Shown: positions 1 through 26,125 of the stretch, piece after piece | Layout of the letters: each line of letters starts with the position of its first letter | Numbering within the stretch: the first letter of the stretch is position 1 | Program-made: the position numbers and the translations under genes | Virus record (IMG/VR): IMGVR_UViG_3300036846_000412 | Coordinates: 1 to 26,125 of that record | Strand: one strand, 5' to 3' | Length of the DNA: 26,125 bases | Source of the DNA: a virus | The notes under the pieces: generated by a model | The model's database searches: none | Told to the model about the DNA's origin: nothing | Seen by the model: the letters and a program-made list of their open reading frames with translations, nothing else

Positions 1-72
1 CGCGATCACGATCACGACCGCGATCACGACGAGCGCGAGTCCTGGCAGCGTGATCACGGGGCCGCCGTTCAT
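1..72 (-). CDS. 30-residue membrane peptide, 5' part (duplicate of the gene at 25978-26070)
   Basis: The start codon lies at 72-70 and the frame runs off the left edge of the window. The complete gene is at the right end (25978-26070), because the window repeats 127 bases. Its ATG overlaps the TGA of the tail gene at 69-806 in an ATGA junction. Confidence 0.6.
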   Translation of the reverse strand, partial: MNGGPVITLPGLALVVIAVVIVIA

Positions 73-127
73 GCGCCGAACACGAGGTGGTCGCCGTTGA
101 TCTGCCACCATCGGAGCAGCCCGACGA
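1..127. repeat. Terminal direct repeat, left copy (circular contig overlap)
   Basis: These 127 bases are identical to the last 127 bases of the window. An exact overlap of 127 bp matches a common maximum assembly k-mer, so it most likely shows that the contig is circular rather than being a biological terminal repeat. Genes cross the join without interruption, which supports this reading. Confidence 0.93.
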
Positions 128-2736: not shown

Positions 2737-3098
2737 CGCAGCCCGCACAGCCTCGCGGTGTTCGGCCACGGCTCATAACCGCGACCAGACAGATACGCCC
2801 TGATCGCGACCGTCAACTGGACGGCGGGCGGCCACCGGTCGGCGGTTCCGAACGCCTGGAGGAACTCGCGGCCGTAGGTGCGCTGGAAGCTCATGTCCAT
2901 TTGCAGGCCGCCGTAGTAGCCGTTCCCGGTGTTCGCGTCCCAGCTGGCTTCGCTGCGGTGGATGCAAGTGAACGCTTGGATGAGAGAGCCGGCGTCGTAG
3001 CCGCCGGCGAGGCTGCGTGTCGCGGCGATGGCGAGCGCGACGACATAGGCGACGAACAACGCGGCCGCCGTGCGGCGCCGGACGATGAGGGGAGCCAA
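2733..3098 (-). CDS. Membrane-anchored Rpf-like lytic transglycosylase
   Basis: The protein has an arginine patch, a hydrophobic segment at about residues 11-27 (AAALFVAYVVALAIAAT) and then a transglycosylase-like domain of the resuscitation-promoting-factor type. This family cleaves peptidoglycan outside the membrane. The signature NTGNGYYGGLQ is clear, with the catalytic glutamate at about residue 50 (HRSEASW), two cysteines at about 45 and 118 that would form the family disulphide, and a GRGYEPWPNTARLCGL ending. The start is uncertain: TTG at 3098 is the nearest usable codon before the arginine patch, without a good ribosome-binding site. The same frame stays open through the repeat array to 3629, so a longer repeat-bearing N-terminus is possible. 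The gene lies among replication and recombination genes, not with the endolysin. Confidence 0.78.
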   Translation of the reverse strand: MAPLIVRRRTAAALFVAYVVALAIAATRSLAGGYDAGSLIQAFTCIHRSEASWDANTGNGYYGGLQMDMSFQRTYGREFLQAFGTADRWPPAVQLTVAIRAYLSGRGYEPWPNTARLCGLR

Positions 3099-3567
3099 GC
3101 CCAGCCTCGCCCCGGCCCGCCGTGCCTCGCCCAGCCCGGCCGCGCCACGCCCCGCGGCGCCCAGCCAAGCCGCGAGCAGGGAAGCCGTGCCGGGTCGAGA
3201 CCCGCCCGGCCGAGCCGGGCCAAGCCACGCCCTATCTCGCCATGGGGAGCCTTGCCAAGCACTGCCGAGCCGCGCCCAGACCGGCCGAGCCGCGCCGAGA
3301 CATGCCAGGCCCGGGCCGTGCACTGCCGGGCGAAGGGGAGCCTTGACATGCCACGCCCAGCCCAGTCCGGCCAAGCCGACCGAGCCGGGAGAAGGGAAGC
3401 CCCGCCGAGCCATGCCCAGACCGGCCGCGCCGTGCCAAGCCTCGCCGCGCCGTGCCAAGCCGAGCCGGGTGAAGGGACGCCTTGCCCAGCCGTTCCGTGC
3501 CGCGCCGGGACAAGCCCGGCCATGCCCCCTGGGTGGAGGGAAGCCCTGCCAAGCCCAGGGGGCCAAC
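3088..3567. repeat. Pentanucleotide (GGCNN) repeat array 1
   Basis: About 480 bp between two genes consist of degenerate five-base units, GGCNN on the minus strand (GCCNN on plus). Every 57-91 bases a C-rich block interrupts them. On the plus strand the block core is AGGGGAGCC or a close variant, at 3088, 3178, 3243, 3334, 3393, 3473 and 3537. On the minus strand blocks read like GCTTC-CCTTC-TCCCG, which is three pentamers, so the five-base register continues across the blocks checked. Strand asymmetry is extreme. No ribosome-binding site or known domain is evident, and all three minus-strand frames have long open stretches. Confidence 0.9.
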
Positions 3568-3571
3568 CAGG

Positions 3572-3766
3572 TCACCCGAGCTCGGCCTCCACCTGCTCGA
3601 GCAGTTCGAGCAGCGGCTTCGTGGCGCACCGGAACCGTTCGAGCAGCTCCTCCGGCGTCCCGCCGAGCCGCTGGTTGCGGGCGGCGGTTTCGCGGCGGAC
3701 ACGGATGATGCTCGTCGCCCTCGCGATCCTGCCGGCGACCGTTTCGCTGTCGGCGCAGACGGTCAT
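3572..3766 (-). CDS. 64-residue helical protein, unknown function
   Basis: The protein starts MTVCADSETVAGRIARATSI and is largely helical. A basic stretch is followed by TPEELLERFRCATKPLLELL and an acidic end (EQVEAELG), consistent with a helical hairpin or short coiled coil. The ATG overlaps the TGA of the upstream 216-residue gene in an ATGA junction, which fixes the start. Array 1 begins about five bases after its stop. I do not recognise the family. Confidence 0.65.
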   Translation of the reverse strand: MTVCADSETVAGRIARATSIIRVRRETAARNQRLGGTPEELLERFRCATKPLLELLEQVEAELG

Positions 3767-4413
3767 GCCGCCACCTTCTCGGCCTTCTCGGCCTTCTTCG
3801 CGACGGCGGCGTCGATGGTGCCGAGGAACCGGCCGTAGATCGGCCTCATCTCGCCGAGCCCTTCGAACCGGCCCGCGTCGGCCCACGCCTGCTGCAGCTT
3901 GTCCAGATCCCACAGCACCTCGTCGGCTTCGATCGGCAGCTCGAACGTCCACTCCGTGAACATCGGCCGTGTACGCATCGTCCGGGCGCGTTGCACCCCG
4001 ACGGTCTTGCGGAGCCACAGCTTCTCCCGCCACATCCCTTCGGCGTCCTGCGGGCCCGGGTAGCTGAGTTGGCAGAACGTGTCCAACGGATGCACGCCCC
4101 GCAACACGTCTTTGCCTTTGCGTTGCCGGACCGCGCCGTCCTGGAGGCAGCGGATAACGTTCCAGGCCGGAACACCGATCGTTTGACCATCCTCATCGTC
4201 GGGCGTTTCGATCGGCGGGTCCGTATACAGCCCGCCAAGACACTCCAGGTGGCCGATCTCCAAATGGTCGGCCTCCTGCTTCGACCGTTTCTTCGCGATC
4301 GTCTGGATCGCCCGCGTGAACGGGTCCAGCGGATCAGCCAGCCGTTCGTTGTGGCAGATCAACGGCGACCCGCCAACCTCGGCGCGTCCGTCTGCTCTGA
4401 GTACGAGTTTCAC
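3763..4413 (-). CDS. Conserved-looking phage protein, unknown function (216 aa)
   Basis: The 216-residue protein begins VKLVLRADGRAEVGG and continues with a helical ADPLDPFTRAIQTIAKKRSK segment, HLECLGGLYTD, a WNVIRCLQDGAVRQRKGKD stretch and an MRTRPMFTEWTF segment towards the end. It ends GRFLGTIDAAVAKKAEKAEK. The general plan (MRTRP-x-F-x-x-W, GRF near the end) reminds me of uncharacterised proteins in other tailed phages, but I cannot name a function. GTG at 4413 is preferred because AAGGGAG lies five bases before it; an ATG at 4428 is upstream of that site. The frame is also open through array 2. The basic KKAEKAEK tail could contact nucleic acid. Confidence 0.75.
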   Translation of the reverse strand: MKLVLRADGRAEVGGSPLICHNERLADPLDPFTRAIQTIAKKRSKQEADHLEIGHLECLGGLYTDPPIETPDDEDGQTIGVPAWNVIRCLQDGAVRQRKGKDVLRGVHPLDTFCQLSYPGPQDAEGMWREKLWLRKTVGVQRARTMRTRPMFTEWTFELPIEADEVLWDLDKLQQAWADAGRFEGLGEMRPIYGRFLGTIDAAVAKKAEKAEKVAA

Positions 4414-4451
4414 CTGTGCTCCCTTCATGTCTGGTTGAGAGGACGTGCATC

Positions 4452-4466
4452 CGGGCCGTTGGCCCG
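4452..4466. other. Short inverted repeat at the edge of array 2
   Basis: CGGGCC at 4452-4457 pairs with GGCCCG at 4461-4466 around GTT, and AAAA follows on the plus strand. It sits between the array and the start of the 216-residue gene. On the transcribed minus strand the T-run comes before the hairpin, so it is not a terminator for that direction. Confidence 0.45.
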
Positions 4467-4469
4467 AAA

Positions 4470-4948
4470 AGGGGAGAAGAAGCCGCGCCCAGCCAAGCCC
4501 GGACCTGACTCGCCGCGCCCAGCCGCGCCTGGCCCCGCCAGGCCAGGGCCTCGCCCATGCCATGCCGAGCCCCGCCTGAGCCACGCCGTGCCTTGCCACG
4601 AGCAAGGGGAGCCCTGCCGAGCCCTGAAGTAGGGGAGCCCGGCCATGCCGTGCCGGGCCGAGCCTAAGCCGTGCCACGCCGCACCAGGACCGGCCGAGCC
4701 ACGCGAGGTGAAGGGGAGCCCTGCCAGGCCCAGCCTCGCCCAGACGCGCCACGCCATGCCGCGCCCGGCCTGGCCATGGGTAAGGGAGCCATGCCACGCC
4801 ATGCCGGAGCCCTGCCGAGCCTGACCTAGCCGCGACCAGCCGTGCCATGCCGACCGCCGCGCCTTCGAGTAGGGGAGCCATGCCGAGCCGCGGCGCGCCG
4901 GGCCCTGCCGCGCCCTGCCGCGCCAAGCCTGGACGGGCCTTGCCACGG
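4470..4948. repeat. Pentanucleotide (GGCNN) repeat array 2
   Basis: This second array of about 480 bp fills the gap between the 64-residue membrane protein and the 216-residue gene. On the minus strand it is again built from GGCNN pentamers, with blocks such as GGCTC-CCCTT-CACCT, GGCTC-CCTTA-CCCAT and GGCTC-CCCTA-CTTCA. On the plus strand exact AGGGGAGCC occurs at 4605, 4631, 4712 and 4871, with AAGGGAGCC at 4782. A few one-base slips occur, but most units keep the five-base phase. Composition and design match array 1, so the two are related. Confidence 0.9.
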
Positions 4949-5143: not shown

Positions 5144-5352
5144 GCGACGGCCTCGGCGCCGTCGTACCACTCCGCCTCCATCTCGTCCGCCAACCTGTCC
5201 TGCTCGAGCTCGATCACGCGATCGGCGTACAGCTGGATCGCGAGGCCTGCGATGACGCTCAGCTCGATCAAAGGCGGGTCGTTCAAAGCGACAGCGGCGG
5301 CTTCGGCGTCGTGGCAGGCAGCGACGAGCCGGTCGACCAGATCGCCGCTCAC
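5140..5352 (-). CDS. 70-residue helical protein, unknown function
   Basis: The protein begins VSGDLVDRLVAACHDAEAAA and continues as an almost entirely helical, acidic chain with IELSVIAGLAIQLYADRVIE in the middle and DEMEAEWYDGAE at the end. There is no convincing membrane helix. The GTG at 5352 overlaps the methyltransferase stop (GTGA) and its own TGA overlaps the next ATG, so it is held between two coupled neighbours. I do not recognise the family; the operon position suggests an early accessory protein. Confidence 0.65.
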   Translation of the reverse strand: MSGDLVDRLVAACHDAEAAAVALNDPPLIELSVIAGLAIQLYADRVIELEQDRLADEMEAEWYDGAEAVA

Positions 5353-6566
5353 GGCGACGCCTCGGCGAGCAGTGACAGCTGCTGTAACCGGCGTGCGGCG
5401 AGCTGGCCGTACGGCTCGGACAGTTCGACGCCGACGCAGTGGCGCCCTTGTTGACGCGCGACGAGCGCCGTGGTGCCGGAGCCGAGGAACGGGTCGAGGA
5501 CGCGGCCGGGCCGGTAGTCGCCGTGGCCGCAGTCCGACCAGCCGATTGTCGACGTCGACTTCTCGAGCCGCCGGCCGCTGCTCATCACGCGGACGCCTGA
5601 GTTGCACAGCGTCCCGCCCGCGCGTTGGCCGTTGTTCAAGCGGTTGCCGGGGTTCTCGTACTCGACGTCGACGAGCCGCTCGCGCGGCTTCCCACAGACG
5701 CGGCAGACGAGCTCCGGGCAGCCGGCGAGGATGCAGCGGCGCACGAGCTCCTCCGGGAACGTCGCGAAGTGCGCCTCCGCGTACGGCTGCGTCGCGATCT
5801 CCCAGACGTCGCGGACGTTGCGGCCGGCAGCCCGGTAGCGCTCGAGCTCCTCGTCTGTCCATTCGCGCCCGAACGACGCATAGCGGCTGTTGCCGTGCTC
5901 GGAGTGCTTCGGCGTCGTCTGCTTCGATGACCAGCGGTCCCACGACGCTTGCTCTCGGACGGCCTCCTGGTCGAACCAGTACCGCGGCGACTTGCTGAGC
6001 AGAAACACGTATTCGTGCGCGTTCGTCGGCCGGTCTGTCACCGACTCCGGCATCGGGTTTGGCTTCGCCCAGATGACGTCGCTGCGGAGCCACCAGCCGT
6101 CGGCCTGCAAGGCGAACGCGACTCGCCACGGGATCCCGATGAGATCCTTCGGCTTGAGCTCGGCCGGCCGGCTGTTCGGGATGCGAGGGCGGGCGCGCTC
6201 CCGGAGCGACGAGGGCGTCACCTTGAAGGAGCCGTGCATCCCGGCTTCGCGTGTCTCGTTGCGGTTGCCGCCCCACTTCGTCGAGCCATTCGTCGCGTAG
6301 CTGTCGCCGAGGTTCAGCCACAGCGTCCCGTGGTCGGACAGCACCCGCCGTACCTGCCAGAACGCCGCGACGATGTTCTCGACGTACTTCTCCGGCGAGT
6401 GCTCCAGCCCGAGCTGTCCGGCGACGCCGTAGTCGCGGAGGCCCCAGTACGGCGGCGACGTCACCACACAATCCACGGAACCCGTCTCGAACGTCGGCAA
6501 GACGTCGCGGACGTCGCCGAGCCACAGCGTGAAGTCCGTGTCGGCGACGAACGGTGTCACGCGCAC
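5349..6566 (-). CDS. DNA methyltransferase, TSPPY (beta) class, N4-cytosine or N6-adenine
   Basis: This protein of about 405 residues has the motif order of beta-class amino-methyltransferases. The catalytic TSPPYW is near the N-terminus (residues 36-41), followed by WLNLGDSY and WRVAFALQADGWWLRSDVIW. The S-adenosylmethionine-binding DPFLGSGTT is near the C-terminus (358-366), followed by VGVEL. Between them is a target-recognition region with a possible zinc site (Cys283, Cys288, Cys291, Cys346). The enzyme methylates exocyclic amino groups in DNA; the recognition sequence cannot be read from sequence. No restriction enzyme is present, so protection of phage DNA from host restriction, or a regulatory mark, are likelier roles than restriction-modification. 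The start could be GTG at 6566 or 6560. A 17-base element shared with the other methyltransferase lies upstream. Confidence 0.9.
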   Translation of the reverse strand: MRVTPFVADTDFTLWLGDVRDVLPTFETGSVDCVVTSPPYWGLRDYGVAGQLGLEHSPEKYVENIVAAFWQVRRVLSDHGTLWLNLGDSYATNGSTKWGGNRNETREAGMHGSFKVTPSSLRERARPRIPNSRPAELKPKDLIGIPWRVAFALQADGWWLRSDVIWAKPNPMPESVTDRPTNAHEYVFLLSKSPRYWFDQEAVREQASWDRWSSKQTTPKHSEHGNSRYASFGREWTDEELERYRAAGRNVRDVWEIATQPYAEAHFATFPEELVRRCILAGCPELVCRVCGKPRERLVDVEYENPGNRLNNGQRAGGTLCNSGVRVMSSGRRLEKSTSTIGWSDCGHGDYRPGRVLDPFLGSGTTALVARQQGRHCVGVELSEPYGQLAARRLQQLSLLAEASP

Positions 6567-6660: not shown

Positions 6661-7236
6661 TCACGTAGCCGCCTCACCGAGCTGGACGTGTTCTAACGCC
6701 TGGTCGCCCCACGTGTCCCACCCGAGTCTTTGGCGACGTGCGAACAGCTCGAGCCGCGGCGCCGGGCTCGCGGCCTCGATCCAATCCATGAAGCAATCCG
6801 GCTTGCTCGAATGCCTACGCATAGGCGGCCGTGGTGTGACAATCACCGACGACGGAAATGTCCACGAGACGTTCGGCGCGCCGCGTTTCCCGACTAGCAG
6901 AAACTCGGCTGCGGACGGTGCTACCGAGCCGACTGGCATCGGATTGTTCTTACCCCAAACCAGCGTTTGACGATAACGGAATCCCCAGGCGTGCATTACA
7001 TCGAAGCTTTCCGGCAAATACTTGTTGGTCGTCCATAGCCAGAGAACGGAATCACGATCGGCAAAGTCGTGCACCGGAATACCTGCGATCCGATCGACCG
7101 TGAGCGTCCCGTACGGGAACGGCTCGGATGTCCCAAACGTGCCCGACTCGGCACCGCCGATCGCGCGACGCTCGTACTCCCACGGCGGGTCGGCGACGAT
7201 GGTGCGGTACCTCACGCCAACCCGCCCGTCGGGCAC
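6661..7236 (-). CDS. MT-A70-family N6-adenine DNA methyltransferase
   Basis: This protein of about 191 residues carries the catalytic DPPW of the MT-A70 family at residues 16-19 (TIVADPPWEY). DSVLWLWTTNKYLPE, the GFRYRQTLVWGKNN strand-helix region and a RRHSSKPDCFMDWIE segment follow, as in phage Dam-like enzymes. It should transfer a methyl group from S-adenosylmethionine to adenine N6 in DNA. A GTG at 7236 gives the full frame; a later GTG at 7215, close before the conserved domain, is possible, and neither has a strong ribosome-binding site. It is the first gene of the leftward early block. The next methyltransferase starts 95 bases downstream. Confidence 0.88.
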   Translation of the reverse strand: MPDGRVGVRYRTIVADPPWEYERRAIGGAESGTFGTSEPFPYGTLTVDRIAGIPVHDFADRDSVLWLWTTNKYLPESFDVMHAWGFRYRQTLVWGKNNPMPVGSVAPSAAEFLLVGKRGAPNVSWTFPSSVIVTPRPPMRRHSSKPDCFMDWIEAASPAPRLELFARRQRLGWDTWGDQALEHVQLGEAAT

Positions 7237-18075: not shown

Positions 18076-18720
18076 TCATGCTCCTTTCGCTGCGAGCTCG
18101 GTTAGCTGACGCATCATCTGGGCCCTCACCTGAGGCGGGCTGCCAGGGCCGACATGCACGAACCTGGCCGGCTGCTCCGGCGCGTGCGGGTACTGGAGTC
18201 TGAGCGCGTTCCAGCCGACGGGCAGCCAGCAGGTGCGGCCGAGCAACTCGGTGTGTTTCAGCTGCTGGACGGGCCGGCCGCCGTAGCCGAGCAGGTCGTG
18301 GAGGGCGGCTTGTTCCCACCAGGGGTGGAACGTGTACCGGTCGAGCCGCCACATCGCCTCGAGGACGGGCTGCATCGGCTGCCGCAGATACCAGACGCCG
18401 CACGACGGCACGTCGCCTTCCGGTGTCCGGTGGAGGGTGATGCCGTGCCACGCGTCGGCGTCCATGTCGTCGGCGATGTCGACGTCGGGGTCGAGGATGA
18501 GGACGTCGCAGTCGATCCACAGCACCTCGTCGAACTCGTCGAGAGCCTCGAGGAGGCGGGTGATTTTGCCCCACGACGGCGGCCTGGTCAGCATCCTGGG
18601 CGGGTCGGCGACGAGCTCGTAGCCGTGCCGGTCGGCGTAGTCGGCGAACCCGGGGAGGGACAGGTCGAGCAGCTGCTCGAAGTCGCTGCCGACGGCGAAC
18701 GTGACGAGCGCCCGGTTCAC
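18076..18720 (-). CDS. Glycosyltransferase, GMA12/MNN10-like
   Basis: The 214-residue protein has a GT-A-type fold signature. The N-terminal strand ALVTFAVGSDF is followed by a helix and HGYELVAD, then SWGKITRLLEALDEFDEVLW and the metal- and nucleotide-sugar-binding DCD (residues 70-72). A further segment FHPWWEQAALHDLL and a C-terminal FVHVGPG match the galactosyl/mannosyltransferase (GMA12/MNN10) pattern. It should transfer a sugar from a nucleotide sugar to an acceptor; the sugar and target are not readable. The GTG start overlaps the stop of the second glycosyltransferase (GTGA), and the tail tube gene follows four bases after its own stop. It sits inside a virion structural operon. Confidence 0.82.
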   Translation of the reverse strand: MNRALVTFAVGSDFEQLLDLSLPGFADYADRHGYELVADPPRMLTRPPSWGKITRLLEALDEFDEVLWIDCDVLILDPDVDIADDMDADAWHGITLHRTPEGDVPSCGVWYLRQPMQPVLEAMWRLDRYTFHPWWEQAALHDLLGYGGRPVQQLKHTELLGRTCWLPVGWNALRLQYPHAPEQPARFVHVGPGSPPQVRAQMMRQLTELAAKGA

Positions 18721-19913
18721 GCCGCCGCCTTCGTTTTCGCCCGGCGCTGCTGCCGGTTCTGCGGCTGAACGGCGAGCAGCTCGTCAAGCGCGGGCCGCCA
18801 GTACGTGTCGAACACCAGGTCGGCGTCGTAGCCGGCGCCGAACTCGGCGGCGGCGTCCCTGATCACCTGGTCGTCGCGGGCCTGGTAGGCGGCCTCGAGC
18901 GCCTCTGTGATCGCCGCGACCGCCGGGACGGTGAAGAACGCCCGCTGCGCCGCGTTGTACCACGGCTCGCCGGAGACCAGCCAGCCAGCCTGAGCGAGCT
19001 CGGTCATGGCGGAATGGTCGGACGCGATCACCGGCACCCCGGATGCCTGCGCTTCGACGAGCGGGATCCCGAACCCTTCGCCCATGCTGGGCATGACGAG
19101 CACGTCCAATGCCTGGTAGACGTAGGCGACGAACTGGGCGGGCATCCCGAGGTGCCACGCTTTGTCTGCCGGGGTGCGGATCCGGCTGGTGGGGCAGCCT
19201 GTGTCCTCGGCGAGCCAGTGCATGTTCAGGCCGCCCGCCCCGGTCTTCGGGACAGCTTCGGTGTGGGTGTACAGCCAGGCGTCGTCGTGTTTCTTGGCGA
19301 ACTGTGCGAACGCCTGGAAGATCTGCGGGAACGCTTTCCGGTGCACTTCGGGGTTGCCGACGTTCGCGGCGACGACACCGGCGAGGAACACGTCCGGCGG
19401 GATGCCCAGCTCGGCCCGGACGGCCTCTTTGATCTCGGGCTGCGGCCGGAACAGCCGGGTGTCGATGCCGTGAGGCACGTACAGCGGTTTGAGGTCGGCG
19501 TCCAGCATCATCCGTTCCCCGAACCGCGACATGGCCACAGGACGGATCCTGCGGTCTTCCAGGACGTCTTTCACGGCCGGCGGGAGCGGCTGGTGATCGA
19601 CGGGCGCCCACAGGGCCATCCTGAGCCCGTCCGGCCACAGTTTCGGCTGCAGCACCCACGCGTCACACAACGCGATGACGAGGTCTGCGCGGAAATGGTC
19701 GACGAACGTCGCCAGATGCTGGTTGCCCCAGACGTTGTCGGTCGGGTAGCAGACGATGCCGTCCCAGACGGTGTCGCGGCCGTTCAACCCGTAGTTGCAC
19801 AGGATCGCGACCTGGTGGCCGTCGTCGCGGAGCCTGCGGGTGAACAGGGCGGTCTGTTCGCCGTACCCCGAGGCGGCCCAGGGCGCGTTGCTGAGCCAGA
19901 GGATGCGGCTCAC
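18717..19913 (-). CDS. Glycosyltransferase family 4 (GT-B fold)
   Basis: The 398-residue protein begins VSRILWLSNAPWAASGYGEQ, a Rossmann strand and glycine-rich loop of GT-B enzymes. The second domain carries the conserved MPSMGEGFGIPLVEAQASG (E-x7-E motif) and PVIASDHSAMTE of family 4 glycosyltransferases. The enzyme would transfer a sugar from an activated donor, retaining configuration. GTG at 19913 is chosen because it overlaps the stop of the neck gene (GTGA). It is transcribed with the head and tail genes between a neck gene and the tail tube, so its likely substrates are virion proteins. An alanine- and lysine-rich tail (QRRAKTKAAA) ends the protein. Confidence 0.88.
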   Translation of the reverse strand: MSRILWLSNAPWAASGYGEQTALFTRRLRDDGHQVAILCNYGLNGRDTVWDGIVCYPTDNVWGNQHLATFVDHFRADLVIALCDAWVLQPKLWPDGLRMALWAPVDHQPLPPAVKDVLEDRRIRPVAMSRFGERMMLDADLKPLYVPHGIDTRLFRPQPEIKEAVRAELGIPPDVFLAGVVAANVGNPEVHRKAFPQIFQAFAQFAKKHDDAWLYTHTEAVPKTGAGGLNMHWLAEDTGCPTSRIRTPADKAWHLGMPAQFVAYVYQALDVLVMPSMGEGFGIPLVEAQASGVPVIASDHSAMTELAQAGWLVSGEPWYNAAQRAFFTVPAVAAITEALEAAYQARDDQVIRDAAAEFGAGYDADLVFDTYWRPALDELLAVQPQNRQQRRAKTKAAA

Positions 19914-20314
19914 TGGACGGTCTCCAGCCGCCATTCGCAGCCGAGCAGGTCGCCGGGGTACTGGAAGAACCCCGACCGTTCGATGACGCCGCTGCCGCCG
20001 ACGACACCGCCGAACGTCTGGTCAGCCCGCAAAGCCGCCATCACGCTGCCGGGCCCGGCGACGTTCATCATCGACAGCAGCACCTGTTGCGCCCCGATGT
20101 CGTCCGGGGTGGTGACACGGGCACGGATCACGAACACGTCGCGCCACCCGTTCATCGAGATCTGCGGCGGCGCCGCCGCATCCGGATACACGTCGAGGGC
20201 CGGCGGGGTCGGCGACGCGTTCTGGAACCACGTCACCTGCAACCCCGGCACGGTGGCGGTGAGCGTGTCGAGGCTGCCGGCGATCGCTTCCATGATCTCC
20301 TGCAGCCCCGACAC
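19910..20314 (-). CDS. Neck / tail-completion protein
   Basis: The 134-residue protein begins VSGLQEIMEAIAGSLDTLTA, then strand-rich PGLQVTWFQNASPTPPALDV, a VFVIRARVTTPDDIGAQQVL segment and a glycine-rich GVVGGSGVIERSGFFQYPGD near the end. The helix-then-strands plan fits tail-terminator or completion proteins, which are encoded between the head connector and tube in siphoviruses. The GTG overlaps an AAGGGG purine stretch, and the upstream stop lies just before. The call rests on position and general pattern. Confidence 0.65.
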   Translation of the reverse strand: MSGLQEIMEAIAGSLDTLTATVPGLQVTWFQNASPTPPALDVYPDAAAPPQISMNGWRDVFVIRARVTTPDDIGAQQVLLSMMNVAGPGSVMAALRADQTFGGVVGGSGVIERSGFFQYPGDLLGCEWRLETVQ

Positions 20315-22821: not shown

Positions 22822-24077
22822 CTGAGCACCCCGCTTGCAACGTCGGAAGGTGTGCTGTTGTCCAATCGTTCCGCGTCCCGGATCTCCTGGACGGTCAGGG
22901 CGGGCTGGCCGGTCGTCGGGTCGATGATCGAGTTCAGGATCTGCGCCGTCTGCGCCCGCTCCAACGGTTCCGCGGCGACGTACTCGTCGCGGTTCAGCTC
23001 CACCATCGTGCCCCTAGGCAACGCCCAGTTCGACAGGGCCGACATCACATGCTGCGCCTTCGGCCGGAGGCCTGAGCGCCAGTGCATGTCGAACCACATC
23101 GTCACGTTCTTGTACGTCATCGGGTCGGTGCCGGTCGGGATCCCGACGAGCTCGCTGGGGACACCGAGGAGATGCGCGATGCGGCCTTCTTCGCGGTCGA
23201 GCAGCGACGAGAGCGCCATGTCGTGCGGGTTGATCTGCGTCGGCGTGAACGTGATTCCGCCGGACAGCACCGCCGGTTCGCCGAGCGTCGACATCCGGCG
23301 GGTGACCCAGTCGGTCTGCAGCTGCGCCGCCTGATCCGCGCTCAGTTCTTCCGGGTGGGTGAGGACGCCGGCGGGGAAGCTGCCGCCGGCCGCGACTTTC
23401 ATCCCGTACTGGATCAGCATCCGCGCCGCGACCATCCGGTACCGGCCCGCGTCCAACGGCCCTTGGCCGTGCGGGAACCCAACCTGCGACTGATACCGCA
23501 CATGGAGGAGATCCTCGGTGACGTCCTGGCCGCCGATCATGTACGTCCGCTCCCCGGCTTCCATCGTGATCTCAACCCACCACGGCGGCACCACATGAAA
23601 CCGGGCCGGCCAGCCGGTCGAATACCGGGCGGTCGAGAGGACGAACGCCTCGCCGAGCTGGTAGTCCCAGAACAGCTGCTTCGCGAACTCCTCCCACGAC
23701 GTGTAACAGTCCGGGTCCGGGTTGTTCAGCCAGTCCGCCGACAAAGTGGGCGCCGCGTTCTTCAGATACGGCGGCATCGACGACAGCTGGTTCGCGTTCA
23801 AGTCGACGCACATCCACGCCGTGTCCGTCAACGGCTGCGTAATGCCGCCGCTGTTCCAGATCGGCGTCCACCAGTCCTCCGGCCACCCCGACCACGGCAT
23901 CGCCCGGACCCGCGGCGGATCCCAGGATCCGTCATCGCCCTCCAACGTCACCCCGGACGGATCCCCCGGTGTCATCAGCTGATCAGGGCCGACCGTCGAC
24001 GGCGGCACGCTGGCCGGGTCGTTCGGGTTCGGAACGATGTCGTCCGGCGGCCGAATGCTCCTGGAGAACAGGCCCAT
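22818..24077 (-). CDS. Portal protein (HK97 type)
   Basis: The 419-residue protein starts MGLFSRSIRPPDDIVPNPND. Typical portal segments follow: QPLTDTAWMCVDLNANQLSS, the LFWDYQLGEAFVLST and GWPARFHVVPPWWV region, a QIEH-like DLLHVRYQS, and SLLDREEGRIAHLLGVPSEL near the end. A portal is a dodecameric ring at one head vertex that the DNA passes through. The ATG at 24077 overlaps the terminase stop by one base (TGATG). It lies between terminase and prohead protease, the usual order. Confidence 0.92.
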   Translation of the reverse strand: MGLFSRSIRPPDDIVPNPNDPASVPPSTVGPDQLMTPGDPSGVTLEGDDGSWDPPRVRAMPWSGWPEDWWTPIWNSGGITQPLTDTAWMCVDLNANQLSSMPPYLKNAAPTLSADWLNNPDPDCYTSWEEFAKQLFWDYQLGEAFVLSTARYSTGWPARFHVVPPWWVEITMEAGERTYMIGGQDVTEDLLHVRYQSQVGFPHGQGPLDAGRYRMVAARMLIQYGMKVAAGGSFPAGVLTHPEELSADQAAQLQTDWVTRRMSTLGEPAVLSGGITFTPTQINPHDMALSSLLDREEGRIAHLLGVPSELVGIPTGTDPMTYKNVTMWFDMHWRSGLRPKAQHVMSALSNWALPRGTMVELNRDEYVAAEPLERAQTAQILNSIIDPTTGQPALTVQEIRDAERLDNSTPSDVASGVLR

Positions 24078-25837
24078 CAGTACACCGCCGGCATCGGCAC
24101 AGGCCGGTGCGCCGCGTTCACAGCCCACACCAGCGCCTTTACGAGATGCGTCGACGCGGCCGGGACGAGCATCAGCCCCGCTGACAGCTCTTTCACCTGG
24201 GCGGCGTTGACGGCCTGGTCGAGCTCGTCGGTGTCGGTGTCGTGGCAGAGGATCTCGCCGGCGGCCAGGTCGCGCAGAAGCGGCAGCCCCAAACGCGTCT
24301 CCTGGCTGCCGGCGGGCTTCGGCGCCGGCACCGTGCCAGGCGGCACCCGGGACAGGAGGCTAGCCCCCACAAGCAGCAGCCTGACCCGCCGCACACCGCC
24401 GAGCCTGTCAACGTCTTCGATCGCCGAGTCCCAGTCATCGCGGGTCCACCCGGCAACCTCGATCCGGCCGTCGTCCAACACCGCCGCCGCGGCGACGGCG
24501 GCGCCGTCGCCGTAGTCGTCCTCGACCGCCACGAACAACGGCCCGTCACCGTGCACCCCCGGTTCGGCCAGGTGCGCCCACAGGCCGGCCGGCAGCAGCT
24601 GCTCGCCCGGCCCGATCGGGATGATCCGGTCAGGCCACTGGTTCAGCCATTGCGCCCTGAACGCCTCCACGGGGTCGGCCTCGTCCTCGACGACATCGCC
24701 CTCGCCGGACAGCGCCGCCTCGAGCTTCCGGCGGATCAGCCGTTCCCGTTTCGCCGTCCAGTGCGGCGACGCGGCCCGCCACCCGGCCACGTCGTCGAGG
24801 TCGCCGCTCTTCGAGGTCGACCATTCGATCAGCAGATCACCGTCACCGGTCTCGAGCTGGTCCAGCGCCGCCTTGCGTTTCGCCAGCATCAGGGCGGTCG
24901 CCTGCCGGTGCGCCGTCGAGATCAGCCACAGCTGCGACTGCTCCCGCTCCACCATCGTCGGCTCCAACCCCTCGTCGATGATCTCCGGCATCACCTTCCA
25001 CGCCTCATCAACCGCGCCCACCGACACGCTGTAGCCGTATACGGACGACTTCGCCCGCAGCAGCCACCTCGACTGCGCCTCCACATGCTCGATCTGCATC
25101 TGCCCGGCGCCGCGGCTGATCTTGTACTCCGGCCGGTTATCCGCCCAGATCAACGCCGGCCGCATCACCTCCTTACACACCATCAAATCCTTGCCGGTGT
25201 GCAACACGTCCTGCGGCTCACCGAACAGGTCCGTCTGATGCATCCGCCACAACAACAGCTCCCGCAGCAACCAGGATTTCCCTAGCTGCCTCGCCATCGT
25301 CAGCAGCAGCGTCTCCCACACCAGCCGGCCGTCAACGTCGGTCTCGAGCAGCCTGGTCGCGACGAGCCGCTGCCACCATCGCAACGGCCGACCGTCGCGC
25401 GCCTCCGCCGCCCGGATGAACTCCGGCCCCAGAGAGCCCGTCGCCTGCGGATGCGGCACCGTCATGAACCGCGGCCACACCGCGTCCGCCGGCACGTCCA
25501 GGAGCTCCTCGAGCCACGGCCGTCGCCAGCGCCGGTCATCAGCCGTCACGCCGGCCCGTTCTGGCTCCGGCTCAGCCAACGGCGGCGCCTGCCACCGGCC
25601 CCGATGAGACTTCACAGCGCCCGCAGACGTGTTGCACCGCGCATGCTCCGGCCCCGAATAGCCCGACCGGTCATCGGTGTGCCCCAGATGCCACTCGTCC
25701 GTCGGCGCGATCGGCTCACCGCACCGCGCGCAGTTCACACCGCCGGCGAGCACAAACGGCTCGAGGCCTCGCCGCGTCGCCTGATGTCGCGCCCCGTAGC
25801 CGCGTCCCGCCGTCGCTGCCCTCAACCCAACCGGCAT
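24077..25837 (-). CDS. terL: Terminase large subunit with N-terminal HNH nuclease domain
   Basis: The 586-residue protein is unusual in starting with an HNH endonuclease domain (about residues 12-75): a zinc pair CARC (36-39), the catalytic WHLGH (49-53) with TDD, a GPEHARCN ending (62-69) and the GYGARHQATRRGL basic stretch. The terminase follows: Walker A ARQLGKS (182-188), Walker B VDEAW (276-280), coupling motif LISTAH (305-310), and an RNase H-like nuclease part that includes VAVEDDYGDGAA and HDTDTDELDQAVNAA. It packages DNA into the prohead. In HK97-like phages a separate HNH protein assists cos cleavage; here it is fused. The ATG at 25837 has GGAGAG about ten bases upstream. No small terminase was found nearby. 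Confidence 0.92.
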   Translation of the reverse strand: MPVGLRAATAGRGYGARHQATRRGLEPFVLAGGVNCARCGEPIAPTDEWHLGHTDDRSGYSGPEHARCNTSAGAVKSHRGRWQAPPLAEPEPERAGVTADDRRWRRPWLEELLDVPADAVWPRFMTVPHPQATGSLGPEFIRAAEARDGRPLRWWQRLVATRLLETDVDGRLVWETLLLTMARQLGKSWLLRELLLWRMHQTDLFGEPQDVLHTGKDLMVCKEVMRPALIWADNRPEYKISRGAGQMQIEHVEAQSRWLLRAKSSVYGYSVSVGAVDEAWKVMPEIIDEGLEPTMVEREQSQLWLISTAHRQATALMLAKRKAALDQLETGDGDLLIEWSTSKSGDLDDVAGWRAASPHWTAKRERLIRRKLEAALSGEGDVVEDEADPVEAFRAQWLNQWPDRIIPIGPGEQLLPAGLWAHLAEPGVHGDGPLFVAVEDDYGDGAAVAAAAVLDDGRIEVAGWTRDDWDSAIEDVDRLGGVRRVRLLLVGASLLSRVPPGTVPAPKPAGSQETRLGLPLLRDLAAGEILCHDTDTDELDQAVNAAQVKELSAGLMLVPAASTHLVKALVWAVNAAHRPVPMPAVY

Positions 25838-25977: not shown

Positions 25978-26070
25978 TCAGCCCCAGCCGTGGAACAGCG
26001 CGATCACGATCACGACCGCGATCACGACGAGCGCGAGTCCTGGCAGCGTGATCACGGGGCCGCCGTTCAT
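25978..26070 (-). CDS. 30-residue single-span membrane peptide
   Basis: The frame encodes MNGGPVITLPGLALVVIAVV then IVIALFHGWG: a short polar start and one strongly hydrophobic helix of about 20 residues. The ATG overlaps the TGA of the fibre-like tail gene in an ATGA junction, so it is translationally coupled. The valine/isoleucine-rich span resembles that of the protein at 9634-9846. It could be a small lysis or membrane-modulating peptide (holin-like), but it is too short to assign. The terminator lies about 55 bases after its stop. Confidence 0.65.
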   Translation of the reverse strand: MNGGPVITLPGLALVVIAVVIVIALFHGWG

Positions 26071-26125
26071 GCGCCGAACACGAGGTGGTCGCCGTTGATC
26101 TGCCACCATCGGAGCAGCCCGACGA
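25999..26125. repeat. Terminal direct repeat, right copy
   Basis: This is identical to 1-127. Removing one copy gives a 25,998 bp circle in which the membrane peptide and tail genes are continuous. Confidence 0.93.
26067..26125 (-). CDS. Fibre-like tail protein, C-terminal fragment (duplicate of 69-127)
   Basis: This is the last part of the gene at 69-806, repeated because of the circular overlap. It ends with the TGA that overlaps the membrane peptide ATG. Confidence 0.8.
   Translation of the reverse strand, partial: VGLLRWWQINGDHLVFGA

What the first reader, a model, noticed from the sequence alone, without database searches (positions are those of the whole stretch)
3088..4948. Two ~480-bp arrays of phase-locked pentanucleotide repeats in an otherwise compact genome
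Seen: 3088-3567 and 4470-4948 are built from GGCNN units on the minus strand. C-rich blocks (minus strand GGCTC-CCCTT-type) interrupt them every 57-135 bases, with one 28-base interval. The blocks are multiples of five bases, so the register is mostly kept, with rare one-base slips. Plus-strand core AGGGGAGCC recurs exactly at 3088, 3334, 4605, 4631, 4712 and 4871. Both arrays have almost the same length and fill exactly the gaps around one gene pair. A phage that overlaps nearly all other genes would not keep 960 bases without use. Inference: a five-base period gives two units per helical turn, so a filament-forming protein, an R-loop or G-rich RNA structure, a packaging or partition site, or a recombination scaffold are all possible. 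I do not know a described element of this kind.
Basis: partly seen in the sequence, partly recalled or inferred. Interest (0 to 1): 0.78.

Follow-up and report, generated by a model that had tools for sequence, protein, structure and literature searches.

The report
Phage VIPR guide-RNA arrays and Vipr gene
The repeat blocks are two sets of guide RNAs of a recently reported phage weapon called VIPR, in which a small CRISPR-like protein uses the two variable letters of each five-letter repeat to recognise, and probably silence, the DNA of rival viruses.

Summary
In detail: 3088-3567 and 4470-4948 are GGCNN arrays on the minus strand, with a strong period of 5. They are not an undescribed DNA element. 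The same sense-strand arrays, with near-random NN, occur in many unrelated phage contigs. In 85 of 104 IMG/VR loci with good arrays they lie near one small protein family (phrog_4652), within 751 b and, with one exception, on the same strand. The window member is the 216-aa gene between the two arrays. Its family profile matches the solved 'SUSP1 Vipr protein' (E=3e-42). Its AlphaFold model (pLDDT 93.5) has the Csm3/Cas7 RAMP fold. A 2026 preprint (PMC13142463) describes this system: VIPR, a Vipr protein plus vrRNAs of 9-16 GGY/NN repeats with a 3' tail. There the NN pairs read double-stranded DNA with a one-base skip and repress competing phages. The 'C-rich blocks' fit the vrRNA 3' tails, which gives about 13 segments here, about 11 of them long enough to be guides. 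I searched cores of six guides through IMG/VR and one guide through 396 actinobacterial genomes and found no convincing target, so the targets are unknown. This is a new member of a known, very recently described kind.

The parts
3763..4413 (-). vipr gene, 216 aa, GTG start behind an AAGGGAG ribosome site; Csm3/Cas7-like RAMP
   Evidence: phrog_4652 E=1.2e-32; family profile against PDB 36pp_D 'SUSP1 Vipr protein' E=3e-42; AlphaFold pLDDT 93.5, Csm3 fold
3572..3766 (-). 64-aa ORF overlapping the vipr stop codon as ATGA; candidate accessory gene (vap) by position only
   Evidence: sequence; no match in Pfam, PHROGs or PADLOC and no relative among the fetched loci
4462..4948 (-). Array 2, upstream of vipr: about six vrRNA segments (approximately 4865-4944, 4776-4863, 4706-4775, 4625-4700, short 4599-4624, long 4462-4598)
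   Evidence: unit parsing and tail positions; the exact RNA ends are inferred
3082..3567 (-). Array 1, downstream of the gene pair: about seven vrRNA segments (short 3531-3560, then approximately 3467-3526, 3387-3466, 3328-3386, 3237-3327, 3172-3231, 3082-3171)
   Evidence: unit parsing and tail positions; the exact RNA ends are inferred
3387..3401 (-). Example of the C-rich tail, GGCTTCCCTTCTCCC; others at 3467-3481, 3328-3342, 3237-3251, 3172-3186, 3082-3096, 3531-3545, 4865-4879, 4776-4790, 4706-4720, 4625-4639, 4599-4613
   Evidence: read as the vrRNA 3' tail by position, not measured
3534..3563 (-). Hairpin GCCCCCTGGG...CCCAGGGGGC at the 5' edge of array 1, around the short first segment (coordinates approximate)
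   Evidence: fold of 3520-3580, -36 kcal/mol

Best explanation
The locus is a phage-encoded VIPR system: [array 2]-vipr-(64-aa ORF)-[array 1], all in one transcription direction. Inferred from the preprint and not shown here: the arrays are transcribed into vrRNAs, each about 9-16 GGC-NN units ending in a C-rich tail; Vipr subunits bind the GGC triplets and hold the NN pairs free; the string of NN pairs recognises double-stranded DNA in the pattern xNNxNN... (one base skipped); and the bound complex represses genes of competing phages, prophages or satellites. Shown here: the arrays, the tails as sequence, the sense-strand rule, the association with Vipr across phages, and the homology and fold of the protein.
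For: Period-5 arrays. Near-uniform NN over 2930 units in array-bearing loci. Array strand follows transcription: 27 of 28 records have matches on one strand only, and the one with both strands has divergent arrays. 85 of 104 viral loci with good arrays carry the family, nearest array same strand in 83 of 84, median distance 45 b. All 84 aligned members are phrog_4652. Profile match to SUSP1 Vipr, E=3e-42. RAMP fold. Six of seven named phages picked by the protein alone have adjacent GGY/NN tracts. The preprint describes the same anatomy and tests the mechanism in SUSP1.
Against: No convincing target found for the window guides. The accessory ORF has no known relative. Two segments have only about three units and one about 23, outside the reported 9-16. 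One-base-longer units occur inside guides. The C-rich tail does not resemble the structured SUSP1 tail described in the preprint. Nineteen viral loci with arrays lack a detectable Vipr.
Confidence: 0.9

Rival explanations
1. The arrays are RNA scaffolds or sponges for Vipr (or another triplet-reading protein, as TRAP reads its spaced NAG triplets), with NN simply unconstrained and no DNA targeting.
For: GGC conserved and NN free would look the same; no target found.
Against: The preprint shows NN-dependent DNA binding and repression in SUSP1, and the window protein belongs to the same family.
Confidence: 0.07
2. A DNA-level element: packaging, partition or origin site, or a recombination scaffold with two units per helical turn.
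For: Long intergenic repeats in a compact genome.
Against: Strand follows transcription even where operons diverge; the neighbour is an RNA-type RAMP; segments end in tails.
Confidence: 0.02
3. Low-complexity protein-coding sequence, a neutral microsatellite or an assembly error.
For: One minus-strand frame is open through each window array; 38 of 52 long arrays elsewhere also have an open sense frame.
Against: Open frames are expected, since GGCNN units permit only TAG. Arrays recur in many contigs and in isolated, complete phage genomes. A neutral satellite would not keep GGC while NN is near random; arrays in bacterial contigs of the parallel scan are mostly low-entropy simple repeats.
Confidence: 0.01

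Closest known systems
VIPR of Escherichia phage SUSP1 and of a Pseudomonas fulva prophage (PMC13142463)
   Same: Vipr homologue, GGY/NN units mostly in groups of 9-16, a tail after each tract, arrays on both sides of the vipr gene, phage-encoded
   Different: Units here are almost all GGC; the tail is about 15 nt and C-rich; about 13 segments instead of four; no recognisable accessory protein; targets unknown
Gordonia phage MakoManhole gp78, Mycobacterium phages prophiBWHA-1 and LittleE, cluster F mycobacteriophages (Quico gp57)
   Same: phrog_4652 protein with adjacent GGY/NN tracts in named phages of actinobacteria
   Different: MakoManhole, prophiBWHA-1 and LittleE have longer tails with a tRNA-like T-arm; cluster F uses GGCA separators; the window has neither
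Csm3/Cas7 backbone of type III and VII CRISPR complexes
   Same: Fold (VIA Z about 10 over about 160 residues)
   Different: 11-15% identity; no identical repeats with spacers at this locus
TRAP (trp RNA-binding attenuation protein); from my own knowledge
   Same: Reads triplets spaced by two free bases, a five-base period
   Different: Different protein fold and triplet; number of units fixed by the ring

Membership tests
VIPR | Vipr protein, a RAMP homologue with RRM core and glycine-rich loop | tested here: met
   36pp_D E=3e-42; phrog_4652; conserved AGxxxGxGDxRP loop; RAMP fold. The thumb was not examined separately
VIPR | Tracts of 9-16 GGY/NN units with hypervariable NN | tested here: met
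   most segments have 9-16 units; two have about three and one about 23
VIPR | Invariable 3' tail after each tract | tested here: inconclusive
   A recurrent C-rich block follows each tract, but it varies and its RNA structure and ends were not established
VIPR | Arrays in the intergenic stretches flanking vipr, in a phage genome | tested here: met
   phage structural genes
VIPR | Accessory gene vap | tested here: inconclusive
   Only a 64-aa ORF without known relatives
VIPR | vrRNAs expressed and bound by Vipr | not testable with these tools
   Needs RNA sequencing and pull-down
VIPR | One-base-skip targets in rival mobile elements | tested here: inconclusive
   Six guide cores in IMG/VR and one guide in 396 genomes gave no convincing target; host unknown, search not exhaustive
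CRISPR-Cas | Array of near-identical repeats with unique spacers | tested here: not met
   Tandem-repeat and direct-repeat searches show no such array at this locus
CRISPR-Cas | cas genes | tested here: inconclusive
   vipr and nine other ORFs against PADLOC: no cas match except a weak one (Cmr1, E=0.0016) of a 73-aa arginine-rich ORF, probably spurious; not all genes were scanned

The most novel reading that the evidence does not exclude
This locus is a VIPR variant of a type not yet described: two multi-guide arrays with minimal C-rich tails, some one-base-longer units inside guides, and either no vap or a new very small one. I could not read the preprint's supplement, where its seven types are laid out.
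Probability: 0.3. Interest if true: 0.65.

Novelty: new member of a known kind. Interest (0 to 1): 0.57.

Why it matters
VIPR is proposed as a form of RNA-guided recognition older than CRISPR, and is known to me so far from one 2026 preprint. This window gives a compact, apparently complete 26-kb temperate phage with about 13 guide segments. The scan also shows that the system sits without annotation in well-known phages (cluster F mycobacteriophages, LittleE, Gordonia phage MakoManhole) and that it can be found from raw DNA by a sense-strand GGCNN pattern alone.

Tried and rejected
TRAP-like ring binding at a fixed number of units: segment lengths vary. Tweety gene 54, recalled as a repeat gene at a similar place: it is an ordinary coding repeat, not GGCNN. 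Target searches: exact 8-unit cores of six guides in IMG/VR, with extension scores mostly at chance; the best outlier, L408 for guide A1-7 (11 of 16 flanking bases, 27 of 32 in all), was not followed up. One guide in 396 actinobacterial genomes: none. A guide shared by cluster F phages in 401 genomes of the Nocardia family: four hits with 3 mismatches, much alike and so probably one conserved gene, against two for the reversed control; not significant. 345 guides of other loci against all fetched DNA: one-base skip no better than other skips or shuffles. An earlier run of that test was inflated because it included loci fetched by the guides themselves, so I discard it. Host search by capsid: nearest named phages are mycobacteriophages such as MadKillah at 47% identity, and one genome fragment at 53%; host unresolved. 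Rfam: nothing reliable. Relatives of the window protein by a single-sequence scan of IMG/VR: none confirmed.

Full report
What is there. The two stretches are GGCNN arrays on the minus strand. Period-5 autocorrelation is 0.55 and 0.54 against 0.33 and 0.32 (s.d. 0.02) in base shuffles, and the top windows for this score in the whole record all fall in or at the edges of the arrays. All six stated AGGGGAGCC copies exist, each the complement of a GGCTCCCCT block. The record is a virus record whose two ends are a perfect 127-base repeat, so it is probably a complete circular genome of about 26.0 kb, with terminase, portal, capsid, CHAP-domain, integrase, ERF recombinase and two DNA methyltransferase genes.

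Same thing elsewhere. A distant DNA search found like arrays in cluster F mycobacteriophages, a little downstream of the antirepressor gene. The pattern (GGCNN)7GGC gave at least 120 stretches of IMG/VR (the scan stopped at its limit). In the array-bearing loci the NN pairs are close to uniform over 2930 units, and in the cases read each array lies between genes, starting shortly after a stop codon. Arrays in bacterial contigs of the parallel scan are mostly low-entropy simple repeats. In 27 of 28 whole records all matches lie on one strand, with almost no matches to the reversed control. The one record with both strands has divergent arrays: one beyond minus-strand genes and one before plus-strand genes. 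Strand therefore follows transcription, which points to RNA.

The partner protein. The 216-aa protein between the window arrays has relatives beside the arrays of other phages; in G020 the homologous gene is also flanked by arrays on both sides. An iterated HMM settled at 92 ORFs in 92 loci, one each. Of viral loci with a good array, 85 have the protein and 19 do not. In 84 loci the nearest array is on the same strand in 83, median distance 45 b, maximum 751 b. All 84 aligned members match phrog_4652, of unknown function. The family has a G-rich loop (AGxxxGxGDxRP...GRF) near the C terminus.

Identity. The family profile finds one significant solved structure, 36pp_D, 'SUSP1 Vipr protein', E=3e-42. 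AlphaFold2 with 82 sequences gave pLDDT 93.5 and pTM 0.86; the nearest folds are Csm3/Cas7 subunits of type III and VII CRISPR complexes (Foldseek E down to 2.5e-5; VIA Z about 10). [quoted passage not shown] The anatomy of the window matches in all main points.

Anatomy here. Transcription order (minus strand): array 2, vipr (3763-4413), a 64-aa ORF overlapping its stop as ATGA (3572-3766), array 1. Cutting at the C-rich blocks gives about 13 segments. Most have 9-16 units; two have about three and one about 23. I read the C-rich blocks as vrRNA tails. That is inference from position: RNA ends were not measured. In-phase GTC, GAC and TGC units and one-base-longer units occur inside guides. 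The 64-aa ORF may be the accessory gene, but nothing supports that except position.

Function. That the RNAs are made, bind Vipr, recognise DNA with a one-base skip and repress it is inferred from the preprint. My own test of the code failed to find targets: six 8-unit cores in IMG/VR gave hits whose flanking units match mostly at chance level, and one 26-base guide gave none in 396 genomes. Own-genome matches do not exceed the best shuffles by more than one base. The host is not known, so these negatives carry little weight.

Independent check. Searching named phages by the protein alone found 129 records. Of seven read, six have in-phase GGY/NN tracts beside the gene (MakoManhole, prophiBWHA-1, LESphi2, LittleE, Medea1, wV8); wV8, a Felix O1-like phage, uses mostly GGT. 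Trine shows none in the two stretches read.

Verdict. Real and, by every comparative sign, functional; already explained in kind by a system described in 2026. New member of a known kind. The tail type and the missing accessory family may make it a variant, which I could not test because the preprint's supplement could not be read.

Noticed in passing
L030 upstream of vipr, L118 4719-4787, L104 1719-1811; MakoManhole L427, prophiBWHA-1 L428, LittleE L431: GGY/NN tracts in several actinophage loci are followed by a tRNA-like piece (acceptor-like stem plus T-arm..GGTTCGACTCC..); ARAGORN calls weak tRNAs in L118 and L104. It may serve RNase P or RNase Z processing; the main text of the preprint does not mention it.
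   Followed up: partly
L009, L010, L011 (cluster F mycobacteriophages Quico, James, Donkeykong): A phrog_4652 (Vipr-family) gene annotated hypothetical with one 250-350 b array; GGCA four-base units split the array (GGCA is 216 of 240 four-base units over all loci).
   Followed up: partly
L012, L016, L020, L033, L038, L043, L065, L076-L078, L093, L095, L102, L103, L114, L116, L123, L125, L131: Nineteen viral loci have good GGCNN arrays but no detectable Vipr: cut contigs, divergent proteins, or arrays that act in trans.
   Followed up: no
L157 and L169 (bacterial MAG contigs: Fibrobacteres, Patescibacteria): Vipr-family gene with adjacent arrays in MAG contigs; prophage or cellular origin not checked.
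   Followed up: no
window 24077-25837: 586-aa terminase-like ORF with an HNH-like N-terminal part, residues 7-83.
   Followed up: no
window 18717-19934: GT4-type glycosyltransferase inside the structural gene region.
   Followed up: no
window 5349-6566 and 6661-7236: Two DNA methyltransferases, N6_N4_Mtase and MT-A70 type, next to the VIPR locus.
   Followed up: no
window 1-127 and 25999-26125: Perfect 127-base terminal repeat, so the record is probably a complete circular genome of about 25,998 b.
   Followed up: no
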